Below are positions 11,513 through 51,265 of a DNA stretch of 64,000 bases, in pieces; within the stretch, counting starts at the first letter, position 1, and the number at the start of each line of letters is the position of its first letter. Source of the stretch: Bacteroidota bacterium (GTDB lineage: Bacteria > Bacteroidota > Bacteroidia > Cytophagales > Cyclobacteriaceae). A program made the position numbers and the translations under genes. Under the pieces are notes generated by a model. That model was not told where the DNA came from. It saw nothing but the letters and a program-made list of their open reading frames with translations, and did not search any database. The stretch covers positions 206-64,205 of the forward strand of contig JAFDYU010000007.1 in the NCBI GenBank assembly GCA_018267285.1, read 5' to 3'.

Positions 11513-13759
11513 ATGAGAAAACTATTACCTATTCTTCTATTGGGTTTCGGCTGGAGTGTAGTGGCACAACAGAAACCCGAAAAGGAGGCCATTCAATGGA
11601 AAGGCAAATTTGAGCAACTCGAGCAGATGTTGCCCACGCCCAATGAGTACCGCACGGGCTCCGGAGCCCCGGGATCCAAGTATTGGCAGCAACGAGCCGA
11701 CTATGTTATCAACGCAGAACTGAACGATGAAAATCAAAGCATAACCGGTTCCGAAACCATCACGTATTACAACAATTCGCCCGATGCACTAAAATATTTG
11801 TGGCTGCAACTCGATCAGAACATCTACGAGAAAGATAACAACACCACGAAAACAGCAACAAATGTTATGCGAGACTCCCTCCCCACCAAAAGCATAGCCG
11901 GAACCCTATCGCTTTACGACTTTGATGGGGGTTACAAATTAAAATCGATTAAAGACGCGAGCGGAAAAGCAATCCCGTTTACGGTAAACAAAACCATGAT
12001 GCGTTTGGATCTGCCTCAACCTTTGGCCTCTGGCCAGAAAATTTCTATTTCCATAGAATGGTCTTTCAATATTCACAATCGTGTTACGGGCGCCTCACCC
12101 AACGATGGCCGAAGCGGAATGGAATATTTCCCCGAAGATGGAAATTACCTCTACATCATTGCGCAATGGTTTCCACGCATGTGTGTGTATGACGATGTGG
12201 TAGGGTGGCAACACAAACAGTTTCTCGGCCGAGGAGAATTTACGTTGGCCTTTGGAAACTACGAAGTTAACCTAACGGTGCCTGCCGATCATATTGTAGC
12301 CGGAACCGGTATGGTAAAAAACCTAAAAGAAGTATTAACCGCTGACCAGTTTGCGCGTTTTGAAAAAGCAAAAACCTCTTACGATAACCCCGTAATCATT
12401 TGTACACAAGCAGAAGCCGAACAAAGAGAGAAACAGAAATCGAAGGCGAAGAAAACATGGCGATTTACCGCTGAAAATGTTCGCGATTTTGCATTTGCCA
12501 CATCGCGCAAATTTATTTGGGATGCACAGGCCGTTAAGCTAGCCGGAAAAACTCCGCTGGCAATGTCGTACTATCCAAAGGAAGGGAATCCATTGTGGGA
12601 AAAAGAATCGACCCGTGCTGTAAAAAATACAATCACTACGTATTCAAAATACAGTGTCGATTTTCCGTACCCGCAGGCAACATCCGTACACGCGGCTTCG
12701 CTCGGAATGGAGTACCCCATGATCTGCTTTAATTTTGGCCGACCCGGAAAAGACGGTGTTGTTTCCGACCGGCTGAAATGGGGAATGATCGGTGTGATTG
12801 TGCACGAAGTTGGCCACAATTTCTTTCCGATGATTGTCAACAACGATGAGCGCCAGTGGACTTGGATGGACGAGGGCGTAAATACGTTTGTACAATACAG
12901 AACGCAGGTAGAGAACTATCCGGATATGCCGTTACAAAGAGGCCCGGCCAGCAAAATTGTTCCCTACATGAAGGGCGACAAACAATCCATGCGTCCACTG
13001 ATGACCAACTCAGAACAAGTAGTGCAGTTTGGTGCTGAGCAATATGCTAAGTGCGCCACCGCACTGAATATTCTTCGGGAAACCGTGATGGGTCCTGAAC
13101 TTTTTGATAAAGCGTTTAAAGAATATGCACAACGTTGGGCGTTTCACCACCCCAAGCCGGCAGATTTTTTCCGTACAATGGAAGATGCTTCGGCTGTTGA
13201 CCTCGATTGGTTTTGGCGTGGATGGTTTTATACCACCGACAACGTAGATATATCGCTCGACAAAGTGAAGTGGTTCAAAATGAGAACAGCCAAAAGTAAT
13301 TTGGAAGGAAAAGACAAGAACGTAGCCGATCTCTCCAAATCGAAAGACGATAAAGATGCACCCGAAGACTTCAGCAACGGCCCCAGCTACTTTAGTGTGA
13401 TCCCTACCGATGCCCGGTTTAACGGAGAATTTAGAAACAGCATAGACGACAAAGCCGTGGTAACGAAACTCGAAGACAAGAATTTTTATGAAGTAACCCT
13501 CTCTAACAAAGGAGGGCTCGTTATGCCGGTAATTATTGAGTGGACGTTTAAAGACGGCACGAAAGAAACAGACCGCATCCCTGCCGAAATCTGGCGCATC
13601 AACGAATCGAAAGTGACTAAAGTCTTTGCTAAAGATAAAGAAGTGGCCAGCGTAACATTTGACCCGCAAAAAGAAACGGCCGATATCAGCACTACCGACA
13701 ATACGTTCCCGCGGGTTTCGGGGCCTTCGAAGTTTGATCAACTAAAAAATAAAAACTGA
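11513..13759 (+). CDS. M1-family metallopeptidase, first of a tandem pair
   Basis: The 748-residue exported zinc peptidase has a signal peptide at about 1-19 (ending VAQQ). The gluzincin signature HEVGH is followed 18 residues later by the glutamate of DEG, which together bind zinc. An N-terminal beta domain precedes it (ELNDENQSITGSETITYYN). The C-terminal third is beta-rich and lysine-rich. The gene is 28 nt downstream of the HupE-like gene. The next gene encodes a close paralogue with the same domain order, so this is a tandem duplication. Substrate preference is unknown; the family trims N-terminal residues from peptides. Confidence 0.92.
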   Translation: MRKLLPILLLGFGWSVVAQQKPEKEAIQWKGKFEQLEQMLPTPNEYRTGSGAPGSKYWQQRADYVINAELNDENQSITGSETITYYNNSPDALKYLWLQLDQNIYEKDNNTTKTATNVMRDSLPTKSIAGTLSLYDFDGGYKLKSIKDASGKAIPFTVNKTMMRLDLPQPLASGQKISISIEWSFNIHNRVTGASPNDGRSGMEYFPEDGNYLYIIAQWFPRMCVYDDVVGWQHKQFLGRGEFTLAFGNYEVNLTVPADHIVAGTGMVKNLKEVLTADQFARFEKAKTSYDNPVIICTQAEAEQREKQKSKAKKTWRFTAENVRDFAFATSRKFIWDAQAVKLAGKTPLAMSYYPKEGNPLWEKESTRAVKNTITTYSKYSVDFPYPQATSVHAASLGMEYPMICFNFGRPGKDGVVSDRLKWGMIGVIVHEVGHNFFPMIVNNDERQWTWMDEGVNTFVQYRTQVENYPDMPLQRGPASKIVPYMKGDKQSMRPLMTNSEQVVQFGAEQYAKCATALNILRETVMGPELFDKAFKEYAQRWAFHHPKPADFFRTMEDASAVDLDWFWRGWFYTTDNVDISLDKVKWFKMRTAKSNLEGKDKNVADLSKSKDDKDAPEDFSNGPSYFSVIPTDARFNGEFRNSIDDKAVVTKLEDKNFYEVTLSNKGGLVMPVIIEWTFKDGTKETDRIPAEIWRINESKVTKVFAKDKEVASVTFDPQKETADISTTDNTFPRVSGPSKFDQLKNKN

Positions 13760-13767
13760 TTTTATTC

Positions 13768-13797
13768 AAACCGCTGCGCAACACGTGGCGGTTTTTT
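13768..13797 (+). terminator. Terminator after the first M1 peptidase
   Basis: AAACCGC (13768-13774) pairs with GCGGTTT (13788-13794), extended by four weaker inner pairs. A T-run to 13797 follows. It separates the two paralogous genes, so the second is expected to have its own promoter. Confidence 0.7.
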
Positions 13798-13830
13798 CAA
13801 GTTCAACGTAATATCAATTCTTTAAAATAC

Positions 13831-16059
13831 ATGAAAAAAATTCTCGTAACCGGCTTCGCCTTGTTGTGCATTACAGCAATGGCACAAGACAAAAAATGGG
13901 AAGGCAAGTTTGAGCAACTGGGCCAGACATTGCCAACCCCAAACTCGTATCGTTCGTCTTCCGGGGCACCCGGGCCAAACTACTGGCAGCAGCGTGCCGA
14001 CTACGATATTGATGTGGAATTAAATGACGAAACACAAGTTGTTACCGGCAAGGAGTCCATCACTTACTTTAACAATGCGCCTGAGCCAATGAAATATCTC
14101 TGGCTTCAGTTGGATCAAAACAACCTGTCTAACGGAAACATGACCGATAAAACAGAGAACAGCAGTGTTCGCGATTCCGTGCCTACACGTTGGTTTCCGT
14201 TAGCAAGTACCACCTACAACTATGAGGGCGGCTTCAAAATTAAATCGGTGAAAGATGCGACAGGTAAAGACCTTCCGTTTTTGGTGAACTATACCATGAT
14301 GCGTGTAGATCTGCCCACGGTACTTAAAACGGGTGAGAAATTCACCTTTAAAGTGGAGTGGAGCTATGTAGAAAAAGATCGGCTGAAATTTGGCGAACGT
14401 GGTGGCTATGAATATTTTCCCGAAGATGGGAATTACCTCTACACCGAGGCACAGTGGTTTCCGCGCATGTGCGTGTTTGACGACTACGAAGGTTGGCAAA
14501 ACAAACAGTTTCTCGGCCAGGGAGAATTTGCGTTGACGTTCGGAAATTATCGCGTGCGCATAACCGTTCCTTCCGATCATGTTGTGGGAGCCAGCGGAGT
14601 TCTTCAAAACGCCAAGGCAGTTTTGACACCAGCCCAATTCGAGCGTTTCGAAACAGCAAAGAAAACCTTCGATAAGCCCGTTGTAATTGTTACACAAGAA
14701 GAAGCTGTAGCCAAAGAAAAAGGGACACATTCAACGAAAAAAAGCACGTGGGAATTTTATGCCGAAAACGTGCGCGACTTTGCCTTTGCCACTTCGCGTA
14801 AATTTATTTGGGATGCCATGGCCGTAAAAGTTGGAGATAAAACCCCATTAGCCGAGTCGCTTTATCCAAAAGAAGGCAATCCGTTGTGGGGCAAAGAATC
14901 TACAATGGCTGTAAAAAATACGCTTGAAATTTATTCTCAGCGTACTTTTGATTACCCCTACCCGGTTGCCTATTCGGTGCACACCGCCAATCAAGGGATG
15001 GAGTATCCTATGATATGCTTTAATGGAGGCCGCCCTAAAGCCGATGGCACCTACTCGCAGCGCACGTACGAAGGAATGGTGGGCGTAATCATTCATGAGG
15101 TAGGCCATAATTTTTTCCCCATGATTGTCAACTCAGACGAACGGCAATGGGGCTGGATGGACGAAGGGTTGAATTCGTTTTTGGAGCGCGAAACAAAACG
15201 CGAGAGGTATAAGGTAGACATCAGCTGGGGTTCACCCAAAGGAATGACCCGCTACATGAAAGGCGATAAAAATATGATGCGCCCGATCATGTGGACTTCA
15301 GACAATGTTCCCGGCAGAGATTATGGCGGAAATGCCTACGGTAAGCCTGCTGCCGCATTGACCTTGCTGCGCGAAACCGTAATGGGTCCTGAACTTTTTG
15401 ATAAAGCATTTAAAGAATACGCTCAGCGCTGGGCGTTCAAACAACCGAAACCCGCAGATTTCTTCCGCACCATGGAAGATGCTTCTGCCGTTGACCTCGA
15501 CTGGTTTTGGCGCGGATGGTTTTATACCGTAGACAACGTTGATGTAGAACTTGATGAAGTAAAATGGTTTAAGGTGAAATCGGATAAGAGTGATTTAGAG
15601 AATAAAAATGTGAAAGCCTCAAAAGGAGATCTTTCGGCATCGGCCAAAGCGAAATCCAAAACAACCGACTTTAGCCAGGGTGCTCAAGAAATCAGCGTGA
15701 TTGATACCCCCGAACGATTCAATGGCGAGTTCAAAAACAAGATTAATGATGCCGAAGTAAGAGCCAAGCTACAAGGTAAAAATCTTTATGAGTTAACCTT
15801 AAAAAACAAAGGCGGTTTGGTTACACCCATAATCATCGAATGGACTTTTGCAGACGGAACCAAAGAAATTGAGAAGATACCTGCTGAGATTTGGAGAATC
15901 AATGAGAATGAGGTGAAGAAAGTATTCATGAAAGACAAAGAAGTAACTAATGTGACGATCGATCCAAACGATGACAGTGGAGATACCAACCTGGACGACA
16001 ATTCTTTCCCTAAGAAAGCTTCCGGTGAAAGCAAATTTGATATGCTGAAAAAGAAATAA
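13831..16059 (+). CDS. M1-family metallopeptidase, second of a tandem pair
   Basis: The 742-residue paralogue of the preceding protein has a signal peptide (about 1-18, ending AMAQ). It shares the N-terminal GKFEQL / LPTPN motif and the zinc site HEVGH...DEG. The two proteins match along their whole length, including the ending sequence (KFDxLK). They differ most in a lysine/serine-rich segment before the last domain, and the second replaces the first's QYRTQ with a charged ERETKRERY segment after the active site. This suggests a shifted substrate or partner. A terminator closes the gene. Confidence 0.92.
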   Translation: MKKILVTGFALLCITAMAQDKKWEGKFEQLGQTLPTPNSYRSSSGAPGPNYWQQRADYDIDVELNDETQVVTGKESITYFNNAPEPMKYLWLQLDQNNLSNGNMTDKTENSSVRDSVPTRWFPLASTTYNYEGGFKIKSVKDATGKDLPFLVNYTMMRVDLPTVLKTGEKFTFKVEWSYVEKDRLKFGERGGYEYFPEDGNYLYTEAQWFPRMCVFDDYEGWQNKQFLGQGEFALTFGNYRVRITVPSDHVVGASGVLQNAKAVLTPAQFERFETAKKTFDKPVVIVTQEEAVAKEKGTHSTKKSTWEFYAENVRDFAFATSRKFIWDAMAVKVGDKTPLAESLYPKEGNPLWGKESTMAVKNTLEIYSQRTFDYPYPVAYSVHTANQGMEYPMICFNGGRPKADGTYSQRTYEGMVGVIIHEVGHNFFPMIVNSDERQWGWMDEGLNSFLERETKRERYKVDISWGSPKGMTRYMKGDKNMMRPIMWTSDNVPGRDYGGNAYGKPAAALTLLRETVMGPELFDKAFKEYAQRWAFKQPKPADFFRTMEDASAVDLDWFWRGWFYTVDNVDVELDEVKWFKVKSDKSDLENKNVKASKGDLSASAKAKSKTTDFSQGAQEISVIDTPERFNGEFKNKINDAEVRAKLQGKNLYELTLKNKGGLVTPIIIEWTFADGTKEIEKIPAEIWRINENEVKKVFMKDKEVTNVTIDPNDDSGDTNLDDNSFPKKASGESKFDMLKKK

Positions 16060-45372: not shown

Positions 45373-47997
45373 ATGAAAATATTTCTACTCCCCCTTTTTA
45401 TTTTCGGTTTTGTGTGTTCCTTATTTGGAGGGGGCATCAAAGGCTATGTTAAATCTACGGACGCAGGAGTGCTTCCCTATGCTTCGATTTATGTTAAACA
45501 AACTGAATCAGGTGCCTCCACCGATCAGCAGGGTTATTATGAAATAACCCTGTCGCCCGGTCGGTATATAATTATCTACCGGTTTCTTGGATACGAGTCG
45601 GCCGAACGTGTTATTGATGTAGCAGCAGATTTTGTTGAGGTGAATGTCACGCTCAAACCACAAACCATCATGCTTCAGGCCGTAACCGTGAAAGCATCTA
45701 AAGAAGACCCGGCCTACACCATCATGCGCAAGGCCATAGCCAAAGCAAAATTCCATACCCAACAACTCGATGAATATTCGTTTGTAGCCTACATCAAAGG
45801 CAAAGGCAAACTGAAAGATTACCCGTGGCTTGCCAAGAAGGCTTTAGAGAAAGAAGGCATCACTAAAGATCGCCTGTTCATCAGCGAATCGGTAAGCAAA
45901 ATAAACTACACGCGCCCAAATAAATTTGAAGAAAAGGTAATTGCCGTGTACACCACGGGCGGCAACAAAAATGTTTCGCCCAACAATTATTTTTTCGGAA
46001 GTTTTTACAACCCCGAGATTGCCGAGACGGTTTCGCCACTTTCGCCACGTGCTTTCTCGTATTACAAATACGAGTACCTCGGTACGTTTAAAGACGGCAA
46101 ATACGAAATCAGCAAGATAAAAGTAATCCCCCGCTCCAAAGGAGATAATGTTTTTGAAGGAACGATTTCCATTGTGGAAGAGTGGTGGAGTATCCACAGC
46201 CTGGATTTGCTCGCCACCAAGCTCGGCATCCGGTTTCAGGTAAAACAAATTTACAACCCCATTGAAGACAAAGTTTGGATGCCGGTGTCGCAGCAGGCTG
46301 TGGTGGGCGGAAAAGTTTTTGGGTTCGAGTTCGAAGGATCGTACTCGGCTACCATGAAAAGCTATCAGATCAAACTCAACCCGGCATTGCCCGTAGAGAT
46401 GCAGGTTATCGATGAAAAATTAGAAAAAGAAGAAGCAAAAAAAATAAAAAAAGAATTCAGCCAGAAGAACCAACAACTAAAACAACGGGTGGAAAACGGG
46501 AAAGAAATTACCAACAAAGAACTGCGGCAGTTGGCAAAGGCATACGAGAAAGCCGAACAGAAACAACAAAAAGAGCCCGATGTAATTTCCGAATCGAAAT
46601 ACTCAGTCGATACCGCTGCCTACAAAAAAGATTCGCTTTTTTGGGTAAGCATCCGCCCGGCTCCGCTTGATAAAGAAGAAACACGTGGCTACAAAAAGAC
46701 CGACAGCATAAGCGAAGTGCAACGCAAACGCGATGAAGGCGATACTTTAAAATCAAAAAGAAAACACAAAGGATTTAGCCCTTTTGATGTACTTACCGGA
46801 AACAGTTACTCGCTCAATAAGACATCCAACTTTGAAATACGCACACCGTTTGGCGGGTTCAACACGGTGGAAGGCGTGTATGCCATTTATCAAATGAGTT
46901 ATTTCAAACGATGGGTAAAAAAAGATACAGCCAATAAAGAACGAAGACCCGAAACCCGAAGACTTGAGCTAAGGCCGGTGTTTCGTTATTCTTTTGCCAG
47001 GCAAAAACTCATCAGCTACGGACGCCTCGATTACCGCACGCGCACTGCGCGCTTTACGGTGAATGGCGGAACGTACATTTCGCAATACAATAACGATCAG
47101 CCGATTCACCCGTTCGTCAATACCCTCACCACGTTGTTTCAAGGCCAGAACTGGATGAAAATTTACGAACGCGATTTTGTTGATGTTTCATTTCGGCAAT
47201 CTTTGAAAAACAAATTCACATTCAGCACGTCATGGTCGCTGGCAAAACGATACGAACTTTTCAACAACAACAATTATTCGTTTACCGACAAAAGCAAAAC
47301 AAGGTACACACCCAATGCGCCCGTCAACGCAGAATTGCCAACCACAAGTTTTGCCAACAATACTGCTTTTACCGGGGCTATCGGTATTGAAGCCAGACCG
47401 TGGCAGAAGTTCCGCATACGCAACGGATATAAATACAGAGCCAGCCTTTCGCCCTTGCTTTCGTTGAACTACAAAAAAGGAATTGCTTCCGTGCTGGGCA
47501 GCGATGTAGATTATGATCTATTGGAAGTGGGATTGCGGCAACAGATCCGGATGGGCATCCGCGGTGTGCTCGATATGAATTTAAAAGCCGGGAAGTTTTT
47601 AAATGCCAACAAACTGTTTTTTATGGATTACAAACATTTTATGGGCAACCAAACACCACTCATTACCACCGATGAGGTGGGCAGTTTCCGTCTGCTTCCT
47701 TACTATCAATACAGCACACGCGATGAATATTTTTCGGCCAACATCCATTATCACTTCCGTAAATTTTTAATCAGCCGCATACCCAAAGCGCGGATGTTGG
47801 GTGTAACCGAAAATTTCTTTGTAAATTATCTGTCCACGCCTACTTCTAAAAACTATACTGAGATCGGTTATGCCATCAACGGCTTGGCGCGGTTGTTCCG
47901 GTTGGAATTTGCCACTTCATTTCAAAATGGAAATTATGTGGCAAATGGATTTCGCCTGGGGATTTCCACAAATCTTTCGGTAACGTTTTCAGACTAA
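45373..47997 (+). CDS. DUF5686 surface protein with CarboxypepD_reg domain
   Basis: The 874-residue protein has a signal peptide (about 1-20). A CarboxypepD_reg-like domain spans about 22-105 (GYVKSTDAGVLPYASIYVKQ, then YYEITLSPGRYII). A long DUF5686-type region follows, with a Lys/Glu-rich coiled linker near 330-380 (EEAKKIKKEFSQKNQQ). The C-terminal half is beta-rich, ending FRLGISTNLSVTF, consistent with an outer-membrane barrel. It is a Bacteroidota-specific family of unknown role. No terminator is obvious before the convergent peptidase gene. Confidence 0.88.
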   Translation: MKIFLLPLFIFGFVCSLFGGGIKGYVKSTDAGVLPYASIYVKQTESGASTDQQGYYEITLSPGRYIIIYRFLGYESAERVIDVAADFVEVNVTLKPQTIMLQAVTVKASKEDPAYTIMRKAIAKAKFHTQQLDEYSFVAYIKGKGKLKDYPWLAKKALEKEGITKDRLFISESVSKINYTRPNKFEEKVIAVYTTGGNKNVSPNNYFFGSFYNPEIAETVSPLSPRAFSYYKYEYLGTFKDGKYEISKIKVIPRSKGDNVFEGTISIVEEWWSIHSLDLLATKLGIRFQVKQIYNPIEDKVWMPVSQQAVVGGKVFGFEFEGSYSATMKSYQIKLNPALPVEMQVIDEKLEKEEAKKIKKEFSQKNQQLKQRVENGKEITNKELRQLAKAYEKAEQKQQKEPDVISESKYSVDTAAYKKDSLFWVSIRPAPLDKEETRGYKKTDSISEVQRKRDEGDTLKSKRKHKGFSPFDVLTGNSYSLNKTSNFEIRTPFGGFNTVEGVYAIYQMSYFKRWVKKDTANKERRPETRRLELRPVFRYSFARQKLISYGRLDYRTRTARFTVNGGTYISQYNNDQPIHPFVNTLTTLFQGQNWMKIYERDFVDVSFRQSLKNKFTFSTSWSLAKRYELFNNNNYSFTDKSKTRYTPNAPVNAELPTTSFANNTAFTGAIGIEARPWQKFRIRNGYKYRASLSPLLSLNYKKGIASVLGSDVDYDLLEVGLRQQIRMGIRGVLDMNLKAGKFLNANKLFFMDYKHFMGNQTPLITTDEVGSFRLLPYYQYSTRDEYFSANIHYHFRKFLISRIPKARMLGVTENFFVNYLSTPTSKNYTEIGYAINGLARLFRLEFATSFQNGNYVANGFRLGISTNLSVTFSD

Positions 47998-48032: not shown

Positions 48033-48797
48033 TCAATATTTTATTTCTCTATTAGCTACTGTCTTAATCTTTGCTAACCAATCTTTCTCTAGCTCCTTAA
48101 TTGATTTTCCCGTCAATCGTTTCAAGTTTTTTGTTTTGGCCTTCCAGATTTTGATCAGTGTTTGTCGGCCATACGTTTCATCGAGATATTTTACAAAACT
48201 CCCGATCAACGGATAAGAAACTATATCATCTACAACTCTAAAATGTTTAATCATTTTATTCAAGGCTATATATCTTTTGTTATCTACAAGGTATTTGGTT
48301 AACTGGTAAAGATCTTGTCCGTGCCAATTATTGTCAGCGTACACAGCCATGCCTTCATTGATCCAGGTATCGGGTACACCCCAAACGTTCATGGCAACAA
48401 GGTGGAATAGTTCATGGTTGGCGTAAATGCTGTTGATCTTCTCAGACGCAATTCCAGTAATTGCGTTTTCGGCATAGTAGGCAGAGCCATTTGTTTCATG
48501 CCCCTCCAGTGATTTCATTTCTTGGCGAGATTCAACAATAAATAAATGGATCATTTTACGGTAAGAAATTATGCCTACAAATGACTTCACAGAATTAAGA
48601 TATCTTATGATTCTTGGTTTTGCATTGTCAACATTCTTAGCCGTCCAACTGTTAGGCTGATAGTAGATGGTTAACTCCTCCGAAAGGCTGTCCTTAACCC
48701 AATCGAACTTTTTGTTGCGAAGCAGGTGATTGTAGGAGACTTGCCCAAAAGAAATTGTTTCAACGAAGAGAAACAAAAGCACTAACTGTAGCTTCAA
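48033..48797 (-). CDS. Exported gluzincin-type peptidase-like protein
   Basis: The protein is 254 residues from TTG 48797, which begins a clear signal peptide (KLQLVLLFLFVETISFGQ). A longer version from 48947 would first translate the neighbouring ORF6N gene and a threonine dehydrogenase remnant in a wrong frame, so it is rejected. The zinc-protease signature HELFH occupies residues 128-132, with a further WINEG glutamate at 148. Spacing (15 residues) is shorter than in M1. It is the outermost cargo of the accessory island. Its substrate is unknown. Confidence 0.74.
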   Translation of the reverse strand: MKLQLVLLFLFVETISFGQVSYNHLLRNKKFDWVKDSLSEELTIYYQPNSWTAKNVDNAKPRIIRYLNSVKSFVGIISYRKMIHLFIVESRQEMKSLEGHETNGSAYYAENAITGIASEKINSIYANHELFHLVAMNVWGVPDTWINEGMAVYADNNWHGQDLYQLTKYLVDNKRYIALNKMIKHFRVVDDIVSYPLIGSFVKYLDETYGRQTLIKIWKAKTKNLKRLTGKSIKELEKDWLAKIKTVANREIKY

Positions 48798-48814
48798 TTG
48801 AACTAAATTTTGAT

Positions 48815-48873
48815 TTACACAACGCTTAAATTCTTCAAAATATCTTCCGTCATTTCTTTCAACCCAAACTGAT
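48815..48873 (-). pseudogene. Orphan 3'-end fragment C of an L-threonine dehydrogenase gene
   Basis: Minus-strand reading gives the family C-terminus (QFGLKEMTEDILKN...) followed by TAA (48815-48817). Positions 48825-48873 match fragment B (49480-49528) at 46 of 49 bases. The homology stops exactly at the stop codon of the ORF6N gene (48874). There is no start codon or upstream part, so it is a displaced gene end, not a gene. Confidence 0.85.
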
Positions 48874-49428
48874 TTAAAAACCGATTTTTTTCCTGTCGTT
48901 CCATTTTCGTTGACCCGCGTTTTTATCCAATAGGTTCTCCATGGCATCGTAAATTTGGTTTAACTGTGCATCGTGATTGCCTAACTTTTCCTTTATTTCT
49001 TTAAGCTGCGATTTCAAATCGTTCTGTTTTAGCATAAGTTTTCGAATTTCCACAAAAGCCCTCATGATGGCAATGTTCATATTTATTGCAATGGGCGAGC
49101 GCAATACACCGCTTAACATAGCTACGCCCTGTTCCGTAAAAGCATAAGGAAGATATTTATTGGTGCGGTTTTGAGGCAAATCGATCATCACAATTTGTGA
49201 TGATGAACTTTTTTGGAGAGCCTTAACGTGATCTTTTATGGCTTCGTATTCCAATGGCTTGAGTTGAAACATAAAATCTTCGGGGAAACGCTCGATATTT
49301 CGCTCCGCTTGATTCAAAATTCTTGTTTCGACTTCATAAAGATCAGCTAAATCAAAATCGAGCATCACCCGCTCACCCCTTATTTCGTAAATCCTGTTTT
49401 GGATTGATTGTATTATTTGCATTTGCAT
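48874..49428 (-). CDS. ORF6N-domain protein
   Basis: The 184-residue protein carries an ORF6N domain (about 8-95: IQNRIYEIRGERVMLDFDLADLYEV, then RNIERFPEDFMFQL and LPYAFTEQGVAMLSGV). A C-terminal coiled-coil segment rich in Lys/Asn follows. ORF6N proteins are found in phages and mobile elements and are thought to bind DNA. No other phage gene is nearby. Stop codon is directly at the edge of dehydrogenase fragment C. Start ATG 49428 lies 41 nt after the stop of fragment B. Confidence 0.86.
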   Translation of the reverse strand: MQMQIIQSIQNRIYEIRGERVMLDFDLADLYEVETRILNQAERNIERFPEDFMFQLKPLEYEAIKDHVKALQKSSSSQIVMIDLPQNRTNKYLPYAFTEQGVAMLSGVLRSPIAINMNIAIMRAFVEIRKLMLKQNDLKSQLKEIKEKLGNHDAQLNQIYDAMENLLDKNAGQRKWNDRKKIGF

Positions 49429-49469
49429 AGCTGAAAATTCTAATTGTTAGAGAATTTATACTGATCAAT

Positions 49470-49563
49470 TCACGGTTCCCTTAAATTCTTCAAAATATCT
49501 TCAGTCATTTCTTCCAATCCAAACTGATGTTGCCAACCCCAGTCTTGGCGCGCGGGTGAGTCG
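49470..49563 (-). pseudogene. Orphan 3'-end fragment B of an L-threonine dehydrogenase gene
   Basis: Minus-strand reading gives DSPARQDWGWQHQFGLEEM and then a C-terminus ending REP plus TGA (49470-49472). Positions 49483-49563 match the intact gene end (50334-50414) at 72 of 81 bases, including a run of 29 identical bases (49525-49553). It starts 4 nt after the higA stop codon. No N-terminal part exists, so it is a displaced gene end. Confidence 0.9.
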
Positions 49564-49567
49564 CTTT

Positions 49568-49924
49568 TTAATAAGCTTGAATCAATACATCTGTAGGAAT
49601 ATTTAATTTGTTGTGGAGTTGCCGAATCATGTCCAAAGATAGTTTTCGTTTTTTACTCAATATTTCACTGGCTCTACTTTTAAGCCCGACTACCTTAGCC
49701 AAATCGGTTTGAGTATAGCCAAGCTGTTCCATTCTGAATTTTATTGCTTCGACCGGGTCAGGCAAATCAATCGGAAAATGTTTATTTTCATATCGGTCAA
49801 TCAAAATGCCCAAAATTTCAAGTTCGTCTCCTTCTTTAGTTCCTTTCTTGGCGCCAAAAATCAGCTCAAGCCTTTCAAGCGCTAATTGGTAATCCTTTTT
49901 AGTTTTTATTGGTTTTAAGTTCAT
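49568..49924 (-). CDS. higA: HigA-like antitoxin (XRE family)
   Basis: The 118-residue antitoxin starts at ATG 49924, 4 nt after the higB stop; a longer GTG version (49978) runs through higB and is rejected. It has a C-terminal helix-turn-helix (LGYTQTDLAKVVGLKSRASEIL, about 73-94) and an N-terminal toxin-binding part with DLPDPVEAIKFRMEQ. It would repress its own operon by binding an inverted repeat near 50264-50278. Its stop is 4 nt from dehydrogenase fragment B. Confidence 0.88.
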   Translation of the reverse strand: MNLKPIKTKKDYQLALERLELIFGAKKGTKEGDELEILGILIDRYENKHFPIDLPDPVEAIKFRMEQLGYTQTDLAKVVGLKSRASEILSKKRKLSLDMIRQLHNKLNIPTDVLIQAY

Positions 49925-49928
49925 ATTG

Positions 49929-50222
49929 TCAAATTTTGATCGCGTCAATCTTGTCGTATTCTTTGTGTGTACCCACAAATCGTATCCACATCATTTGATA
50001 ATGGAAATTAATCTTAACAATCAGCCGGTAGTTGTTCCCTTTTATATTAAACACAATTCTATTGCTTCCAAGAATACTTGCCGTAGGGTATTCTTTCTTT
50101 ATTTCATTAGTGTTTTTCCACTCACTCTTCTCAGCTTCCCGATACCACGATTTTAGTTGTTGTTCGCAATCTGGATGTTTCACCCAAAATTCTCGAAGTG
50201 TTTTTTTTGCAATTACTCTCAA
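49929..50222 (-). CDS. higB: HigB-like mRNA interferase toxin
   Basis: The 97-residue RelE/HigB-fold toxin begins RVIAKKTLREFW and shows WYREAEKSEWKNTNEIKKEYP, then IVFNIKGNNYRLIVKINF. It would cleave mRNA on the ribosome. The gene order toxin then antitoxin is typical of hig loci. The start is TTG 50222, with a -7 box (50248-50255) 25 nt upstream. It follows the intact threonine dehydrogenase gene end by 98 nt and forms the first cargo cassette. Confidence 0.9.
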   Translation of the reverse strand: MRVIAKKTLREFWVKHPDCEQQLKSWYREAEKSEWKNTNEIKKEYPTASILGSNRIVFNIKGNNYRLIVKINFHYQMMWIRFVGTHKEYDKIDAIKI

Positions 50223-50247
50223 AACACTACTTTTTTTTTATTTTGTT

Positions 50248-50278
50248 CAAAGATAAGCAAAAGTTCCCGTATTGGGAA
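50248..50278 (-). promoter_or_regulatory. Promoter box and probable operator of higBA
   Basis: TATCTTTG (50248-50255, minus strand) matches the -7 consensus. TTCCC (50264-50268) and GGGAA (50274-50278) form an inverted repeat 8 nt upstream of it, where a HigA dimer could bind. No good -33 TTG is seen. Confidence 0.55.
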
Positions 50279-50320
50279 GTACAACTTTAAAATACTTTAC
50301 ATTGTCTTCTTGCAACAATA

Positions 50321-51265
50321 CTATACGCTTTTCAAATTCCTCAGAATATCAGTCGTCATTTCTTCCAAACCAAATTGATGTTGCCAACCCCAGTCTTGGC
50401 GCGCAGGTGAGTCGTCAATAGATTTGGGCCACGAGTCGGCAATGGATTGACGAAAATCAGGATTGTAGGTGATGGTAAATTCGGGAATATGTTTTTTTAT
50501 GGTTGAAGCAATTTGTGCGGGGCAAAAGCTCATCGAGCTGACGTTGTAGCTGGTGCGCACTTTTACTTTTTCGGCAGGTGCTTCCATCAAATCGATTGTA
50601 GCTTTCACAGCATCGTCCATATACATCATAGGCAGGTACGTGTCGGCCGAAAGAAAACATTCGTATTTTTTTTCTTTGATCGCTTTGAAATAAATATCGA
50701 CAGCATAATCGGTTGTGCCACCACCGGGCGGTGTTTTCCAGCCGATCAACCCCGGATAACGCAAACTGCGCACATCAACACCATATCTCCTGAAATAATA
50801 ATCGCACCACAGTTCGCCTGCCAACTTAGTAATGCCATACACAGTTGTTGGATCCATCACAGTTTCTTGCGGAGTATTTTGCTTGGGAGTGGTTGGGCCA
50901 AAGGCGGCAATAGAACTGGGCCAATATACTTTGTGAAGTTTTAACTCTTGCGCTGCTTCCAGCACAAAAAGCAAACTCTCCATATTCAGCTTCCACGCCC
51001 ATCGCGGATCTTTTTCGCCTGTTGCCGAAAGGAGAGCTGCTAAATGATAAACTTGAGTAATTTCATTTTTCTTCAGCAGTTCAAAAAGCCTGTCGCGCTG
51101 CATCACATCAAACTTTTGGTAAGGGCCTTCTTTCAAAACTCCTTGTGCGTCTTTAATATCAGAAGCAATGACATTTTCCTGACCATAAATTTTCCAAAGG
51201 CCTTGTGTAAGTTCTGCTCCCAACTGCCCGCCAGCACCAATCAACAGGATTTTAGTTTTCTTCAT
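50321..51265 (-). CDS. L-threonine 3-dehydrogenase, short-chain (SDR) type
   Basis: The 314-residue NAD-dependent enzyme oxidises L-threonine to 2-amino-3-ketobutyrate. It has the Rossmann motif GAGGQLGAEL (about 10-19), the HLAALLSATGE segment (about 73-83), the catalytic Ser-Tyr-Lys set (WPSSIAAFGP; YGITK near 140) and WKTPPGGGTTDYAVD. The sequence pattern matches the SDR-type dehydrogenase known from Flavobacterium rather than the MDR-type Tdh. Start ATG 51265 is chosen because an upstream frame extension (to 51322) lacks family residues. kbl is divergent, giving a complete threonine-to-glycine route. Confidence 0.9.
   Translation of the reverse strand: MKKTKILLIGAGGQLGAELTQGLWKIYGQENVIASDIKDAQGVLKEGPYQKFDVMQRDRLFELLKKNEITQVYHLAALLSATGEKDPRWAWKLNMESLLFVLEAAQELKLHKVYWPSSIAAFGPTTPKQNTPQETVMDPTTVYGITKLAGELWCDYYFRRYGVDVRSLRYPGLIGWKTPPGGGTTDYAVDIYFKAIKEKKYECFLSADTYLPMMYMDDAVKATIDLMEAPAEKVKVRTSYNVSSMSFCPAQIASTIKKHIPEFTITYNPDFRQSIADSWPKSIDDSPARQDWGWQHQFGLEEMTTDILRNLKSV

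What the first reader, a model, noticed from the sequence alone, without database searches (positions are those of the whole stretch)
48033..51265. Serial cassette-like insertion into the 3' end of a threonine dehydrogenase gene
The sequence shows three versions of the dehydrogenase 3' end in order on the minus strand: the intact gene (A, 50321 onward), fragment B (49470-49563) and fragment C (48815-48873). A and B share 72 of 81 bases with a 29-base identical run; B and C share 46 of 49. Cargo between them is higB-higA, then an ORF6N gene, with a peptidase beyond. The higA stop lies 4 nt from fragment B and the ORF6N stop directly abuts fragment C. This is what repeated recombination at one gene-end site would leave, each event adding cargo plus a new gene end. 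No integrase is visible, so it may be an undescribed cassette system or repeated homologous recombination.
Basis: partly seen in the sequence, partly recalled or inferred. Interest (0 to 1): 0.82.

Follow-up and report, generated by a model that had tools for sequence, protein, structure and literature searches.

The report
Serial gene-end displacement beside toxin-antitoxin genes
Next to an ordinary metabolic gene, this uncultured bacterium carries two left-over copies of that gene's tail, one behind a toxin-antitoxin pair and one behind another small gene; they look like scars of successive imports of foreign DNA, and similar scars occur at other genes in this genome and in related genomes.

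Summary
The last ~90 nt of the threonine dehydrogenase (TDH) gene recur twice downstream, after higBA (fragment B) and after an ORF6N gene (fragment C), in frame and each with its own stop codon. A and B differ mainly at synonymous sites (6 synonymous, 2 non-synonymous codons; neutral simulation P 0.0006), so the differing part looks like two working alleles, not a drifting dead copy. Differences are concentrated in the right part (1 in the left 37 nt, 9 in the right 44), as if a crossover lay inside the repeat. Junctions compared by eye share no core, and no tyrosine recombinase lies in the window. In 0.84 Mb scanned of the same genome, two more inserts have the same anatomy; in three related genomes ORF6N genes sit beside a duplicated 5' gene end. 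Flanking repeats: 6 of 100 ORF6N/HigA genes, 3 of 759 control ORFs. Best reading: one-sided homologous plus illegitimate recombination importing a donor gene end with cargo, repeated at one site, a process known from other bacteria (HFIR, or 'insertion with long target duplication'). A dedicated cassette site is not supported. In passing: attC-like arrays beside integron-integrase-like genes in this genus.

The parts
50321..51265 (-). L-threonine 3-dehydrogenase-like gene (TDH), intact
   Evidence: epimerase family PF01370; full-length homologues 82-93% identical in 31 of 35 other same-genus genomes searched (one, G025, with a stop inside)
50321..50414 (-). copy A: current TDH 3' end (...NLKSV*)
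49929..50222 (-). HigB-like toxin gene
   Evidence: PF09907, E 8.7e-35
49568..49924 (-). HigA-like antitoxin gene
   Evidence: HTH_3; 16 other loci with 81-93% identical homologues
49470..49563 (-). fragment B: displaced TDH 3' end (...NLREP*), in frame
48874..49428 (-). ORF6N-domain gene
   Evidence: PF10543; PADLOC PDC-S05 match
48815..48873 (-). fragment C: displaced TDH 3' end (...NLSVV*), in frame
48033..48797 (-). Peptidase-MA-like gene; the TTG start near 48797 is my reading
   Evidence: PF13485; no match in the other 39 TDH loci at E 1e-4
45373..47997 (+). DUF5686 gene, right boundary of the variable interval; also downstream of TDH in the five relatives G001, G002, G003, G030, G032

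Best explanation
The array is the scar of at least two imports of DNA from related strains. In each, incoming DNA carrying a TDH 3' part followed by cargo (ORF6N first, later higBA) recombined homologously with the resident TDH gene, and its non-homologous end was joined illegitimately to the resident 3' end. The donor's end then completes TDH and the resident end is pushed behind the cargo as an orphan (C first, then B). For the later event the crossover probably lay inside the repeat, about 37 nt from its left border: left of it both copies are resident sequence, right of it donor (A) versus resident (B). Shown: the duplications, frames and stops, the synonymous bias, the uneven spread of A/B differences, the same anatomy at other genes, and closely spaced neighbours in relatives at one of those genes. 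Inferred: direction of transfer, order of events, crossover position, and route of uptake (natural transformation or other). Integration of a circularised donor fragment by single crossover would leave a similar anatomy and is included in this reading.
For: A/B: 10 of 81 nt differ, 6 synonymous and 2 non-synonymous codons, neutral simulation P 0.0006. A/B differences are 1 in the left 37 nt and 9 in the right 44, whereas among 560 pairs of genus TDH ends none has so small a left share (the split was chosen after seeing the data and the pairs are not independent). Over 81 nt B matches G001's TDH end (70) almost as well as A (71), A's best other match is 66. Second 3' case in the same genome: 88-nt fragment, 4 of 4 differences synonymous, P 0.0058, homology ending at the stop codon. 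Third case: a 105-nt region at a gene's 5' side repeated around a two-gene insert, where the two flanking genes lie 92-416 nt apart in 15 of 17 loci examined. ORF6N genes in G001, G002 and G034 beside duplicated 5' gene ends; the kdnA-kdnB pair hit in G001 and G002 is within 112 nt in five other loci. Flanking repeats 4 of 52 ORF6N and 2 of 48 HigA versus 3 of 759 control ORFs. ComEC and DprA homologues present, a weak point because most control genomes have them.
Against: No donor with TDH-higBA or TDH-ORF6N among the 39 other TDH loci, and no sister strain with the empty site at hand. B/C alone (3 differences, 1 non-synonymous) is uninformative (P 0.19). The near-identity of the left 37 nt of A and B is a true local duplication, which plain target duplication also gives. 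The TDH body shows no clear mosaic border against seven relatives. 94 of 100 ORF6N/HigA genes show no flanking repeat, so the route explains a minority or its scars fade. Without the window's own two loci and the attC-like one the enrichment is 3 of 97, P 0.022. The orphan kdnB start of G001 has drifted, with a frameshift.
Confidence: 0.58

Rival explanations
1. Insertion with long target duplication: the cargo inserts by an unknown transposition-like or break-repair process that copies about 40-150 nt of the target, so both copies start identical; part of one copy may later be exchanged with another strain's allele.
For: Same outline as reported for restriction-modification genes of H. pylori (passages of PMC1643837 and PMC3031569); variable repeat length; the left 37 nt of A and B nearly identical; drifted orphan in G001.
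Against: Differences between working and displaced copies are mostly synonymous for A/B and gene X, which a dead copy drifting alone would not show; a second exchange must be added for A/B.
Confidence: 0.23
2. Remnants of integrative elements that target the TDH 3' end with a site-specific recombinase (integrase-less, flanked by att sites, accreted in tandem).
For: Displaced 3' gene ends behind cargo are what such elements leave; tandem accretion would give A-cargo-B-cargo-C (recalled knowledge).
Against: Borders of B and C differ by about 37 nt; other genes with unrelated borders show the same; the nearest PF00589 match on the contig is about 122 kb beyond the window's end; no orphan end at TDH elsewhere but one decayed remnant.
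Confidence: 0.07
3. Ordinary tandem duplication of the TDH 3' region followed by insertion and decay.
For: Three related copies in the same orientation.
Against: Orphan copies kept frame and stop, with synonymous-biased differences for A/B; each orphan begins directly or 4 nt after a complete unrelated gene; same pattern at other loci with other cargo.
Confidence: 0.08
4. Assembly artefact joining variants of a strain mixture.
For: The genome is a draft of 25 contigs, 97.7% complete.
Against: Three mutually different copies separated by complete genes; similar structures in other assemblies, G001, G002, G034.
Confidence: 0.04

Closest known systems
Homology-facilitated illegitimate recombination (HFIR) during natural transformation
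   Same: One homologous anchor, one illegitimate join, import of non-homologous DNA next to a conserved gene part (passages of PMC3240628).
   Different: Reported there for S. pneumoniae, A. baylyi and P. stutzeri by experiment, typically with loss of recipient DNA; here inferred from sequence in an uncultured Cytophagales bacterium, with duplication and two successive events at one gene.
Sequential displacement of T6SS effector genes in Vibrio cholerae (Kirchberger 2017)
   Same: Successive insertions at one place push older gene ends and genes downstream; a mechanism akin to HFIR is proposed (passages of PMC5361080).
   Different: There effector ends with immunity genes; here a housekeeping gene end with unrelated small TA/ORF6N cargo.
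Insertion with long target duplication of restriction-modification genes (Nobusato 2000)
   Same: Selfish or defence-like gene block flanked by long direct repeats of target DNA (as cited in passages of PMC1643837 and PMC3031569; the original was not read).
   Different: Here the copies differ like alleles over part or all of their length, are gene ends, and the cargo is HigBA or ORF6N.
Integron gene cassettes
   Same: Some close higBA homologues lie near attC-like repeats in related genomes: 4 of 30 HigA loci tested.
   Different: No match to that repeat in the window's genome and no PF00589 gene in the window.

Membership tests
HFIR product | Working gene end and displaced end come from diverged alleles | tested here: met
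   Synonymous-biased differences, A/B P 0.0006, gene X P 0.0058; B/C inconclusive (P 0.19); the left 37 nt of A/B are nearly identical
HFIR product | Extended homology with the donor on one side only | not testable with these tools
   No donor genome found
HFIR product | Illegitimate joints without conserved sequence | tested here: met
   Borders differ between B and C and between loci; judged by eye only
HFIR product | Competence for DNA uptake | tested here: inconclusive
   ComEC and DprA homologues present, but found in 10 and 11 of 14 control genomes too
Insertion with long target duplication | Accessory block flanked by long direct repeats of target | tested here: met
Insertion with long target duplication | Uninterrupted target in relatives | tested here: inconclusive
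   Met for the second G000 gene pair (15 of 17 loci) and kdnA-kdnB (5 of 12 loci close together); at TDH all five relatives with the DUF5686 gene have other genes in the interval
Insertion with long target duplication | Copies identical at birth, orphan copy then drifting neutrally | tested here: inconclusive
   Against: synonymous bias for A/B and gene X. For: left 37 nt of A/B nearly identical, drifted G001 orphan
Integron cassette | attC site beside the gene | tested here: not met
   0 matches of the genus attC-like repeat in G000; other attC types not searched
Site-specific integrative element at a gene 3' end | Integrase gene in the element | tested here: not met
   PF00589 search of own genome: 7 matches, none in the window; serine recombinases not searched
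Site-specific integrative element at a gene 3' end | Constant core at all copies | tested here: not met
   B and C start about 37 nt apart in TDH
PD-Lambda-2 defence system | Full-length B protein | tested here: not met
   HigA matches only positions 1-120 of the 402-position B model

The most novel reading that the evidence does not exclude
Small TA and ORF6N modules in these Cytophagales spread by a regular gene-end-capture route: they travel with the terminus of the gene they sit beside and are stacked at favoured gene ends, a cassette-like mobility without integrase or transposase, perhaps helped by the module's own addiction effect.
Probability: 0.18. Interest if true: 0.68.

Novelty: new variant of a known kind. 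Interest (0 to 1): 0.5.

Why it matters
How single toxin-antitoxin and defence-like genes move without transposases or integrases is an old question. Gene ends left behind the cargo give an ordered record of such moves, and the codon pattern helps to tell import of a foreign gene end from simple target duplication. The signature can be searched for in any genome collection.

Tried and rejected
Searched for orphan TDH ends in relatives: none in the fetched downstream DNA of 39 other TDH loci of genus and order (two of them hold under 300 nt downstream). Searched for a donor: no higBA or ORF6N directly downstream of TDH elsewhere; G028 has a diverged higBA near kbl. Looked for a mosaic border in the TDH body: none clear. 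An earlier idea of mine, that B carries the genus consensus at the two non-synonymous codons and that A and B are clearly nearest to each other, did not hold on recount: at codon 20 of the block B's E is in 7 of 38 other TDH ends and A's T in 2; at codon 24 B's K is in 16 and A's R in 1; and B matches G001 (70 of 81) almost as well as A (71).

Considered an integron origin: attC-like neighbours in 4 of 30 HigA loci and 0 of 30 ORF6N loci, none at the window. L104 (G009) therefore counts as integron-like, not as gene-end displacement, although it is one of the two HigA positives. Repeats around L118 and L119 lie in stretches with several repeat pairs and were not counted. Gene X is too rare for an empty-site test: only one close homologue, 49% (35 genomes). 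In the enrichment test the control stretches overlap (parts of G000 fetched more than once), so some control ORFs are counted repeatedly; one of the 3 control positives is the transposase-like gene of the second G000 insert; 3 of 55 ORF6N and 1 of 49 HigA ORFs were dropped for short flanks. Other repeats of the scan lie inside repetitive or paralogous genes, or are tandem, intergenic or contig-end repeats (C23 109 kb, C1 57.6 kb and 96-99 kb, C18 304-308 kb) that I looked at briefly or not at all.

Paper searches: 'long target duplication', HFIR, each with toxin-antitoxin (the latter 0 papers), ORF6N with Bacteroidetes, displaced gene fragments, integron in Bacteroidetes. The library is open-access only. 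Of PMC2654758 the term stood only in the reference list; of PMC4978471 I saw passages.
Full report
Observation. On the minus strand the TDH gene (50321-51265) is followed by higB, higA, fragment B, an ORF6N gene, fragment C and a peptidase-like gene, and then by the convergent DUF5686 gene. B and C are copies of the TDH 3' end. All three ends are in frame, and each runs to its own stop three codons after a conserved 'NL' (...NLKSV*...NLREP*...NLSVV*; read). The whole array is found once in the genome.

Nature of the copies. A and B differ at 10 of 81 nt in the block used: 6 synonymous and 2 non-synonymous codons. Neutral change would give 6.8 non-synonymous codons on average (P 0.0006, 5000 simulations). 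A and C give P 0.036; B and C have only 3 differences in 45 nt (P 0.19). A dead copy drifting since a duplication would not look like A/B. The differences are uneven: 1 in the left 37 nt, 9 in the right 44. Of 560 pairs of genus TDH ends with at least 6 differences, on average 44% of differences lie in the left part, and none has 10% or less (split chosen after the fact, pairs not independent). So the left part of A and B is one sequence duplicated, the right part two alleles: what a crossover inside the repeat would leave. Over 81 nt B is about as near to G001's TDH end (70 matches) as to A (71); A's best other match has 66.

Relatives. At the search threshold 56 of 58 genomes gave a TDH match, remote family members included. 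I fetched 40 TDH loci including the window's own and saw no other orphan end. In the five relatives with the DUF5686 gene downstream of TDH the interval is 1.3-6.4 kb and holds a DUF1800/DUF1501-like pair (G003, G030), ABC-transporter-like genes (G032), a REP-type transposase (G001) or an HNH/methyltransferase-like group (G002) (labels are my reading, not searched). So this is a variable interval, but displaced ends were seen only in the window's genome.

Same anatomy elsewhere in the same genome. A scan of contigs C23, C1 (220 kb), C18 and two 20-kb pieces of C5 (0.84 Mb of 3.33 Mb) for nearby direct repeats gave two further loci of this kind. (1) C1: the last 88 nt of a 649-codon gene recur 3.8 kb downstream, behind a TonB-receptor-like and a multicopper-oxidase-like gene (my reading). 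All 4 differences are synonymous (P 0.0058) and the homology stops at the stop codon. (2) C23: a 105-nt stretch at the 5' side of a large gene (SprE-like by my reading) recurs beyond a two-gene insert (peptidase-like and REP-transposase-like). In 15 of 17 loci examined (of 30 returned) this gene and the M23-like peptidase gene beyond are 92-416 nt apart, match to match; the exceptions are the window's genome and G002.

Same anatomy in relatives. ORF6N genes in G001 and G002 lie just before a kdnB-like gene (my reading) whose start is repeated on the far side of the ORF6N gene (57 nt 86%; 39 nt 95%). In G034 about 145 nt around a gene start are repeated around an ORF6N gene (77%). Of 12 kdnB-like loci, kdnA and kdnB are within 112 nt in five (G000, G003, G006, G009, G022), five have inserts between them (G001, G002, G010, G011, G045), and two are not informative. 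Orphan kdnB starts were found in G001 and G002 only, of seven loci tested.

Control. Direct repeats between the 300 nt before and after a gene, E < 1e-5: 4 of 52 ORF6N, 2 of 48 HigA, 3 of 759 control ORFs; pooled P 0.00014. Leaving out the window's two loci and the attC-like one gives 3 of 97, P 0.022. The control set holds overlapping stretches.

Mechanism. The facts ask for import of a foreign gene end together with cargo, with a homologous join inside the gene and a non-homologous join in the resident gene end. This resembles HFIR as described for competent bacteria (passages of PMC3240628) and as proposed for stacked immunity genes in V. cholerae (passages of PMC5361080). HFIR is usually described with loss of recipient DNA; here about 37 nt seem truly duplicated. 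PMC3240628 also reports that most of its clones were duplications of part of the homologous locus (109-950 bp in 14 sequenced clones), read there as single crossover of circular molecules. The 'long target duplication' literature on RM genes describes the same outline, and target duplication followed by a later allele exchange remains a live rival. ComEC and DprA homologues are present, which says little. Site-specific recombination is disfavoured: borders of B and C about 37 nt apart, unrelated borders at other genes, 5' ends hit too, no PF00589 gene in the window.

Verdict. A real, well-preserved case of stacked gene-end displacement, with sister cases in the same genome and genus. The principle is known; the taxon, the TA/ORF6N cargo and the stacking at a housekeeping gene are new as far as searches of an open-access library show.

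Noticed in passing
It looks like a chromosomal integron family in an uncultured Cytophagales genus; IntegronFinder 2.0 names a complete integron in one Bacteroidetes genome, Salinibacter ruber (passage of PMC9024848).
   Followed up: partly
L222:125-943 (G000 contig C1; L218): The window's genome has an integrase of that group in a 378-codon frame at the very end of a contig, but no match to the attC-like repeat of its relatives.
   Followed up: no
L341, L342, L345, L346, L348: The kdnA-kdnB junction carries different small inserts in five genomes (ORF6N in two; two-gene blocks in three, in two of which one gene looks like a nucleotidyltransferase toxin by my reading): an insertion hot spot inside a gene pair.
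   Followed up: partly
L156:2850-2960: In a Chitinophagaceae genome a decayed copy of the TDH end follows a long palindrome, 86 nt after the TDH stop.
   Followed up: partly
window 11900-15600: Two tandem paralogous genes about 2.3 kb apart, 69-78% alike in stretches.
   Followed up: no
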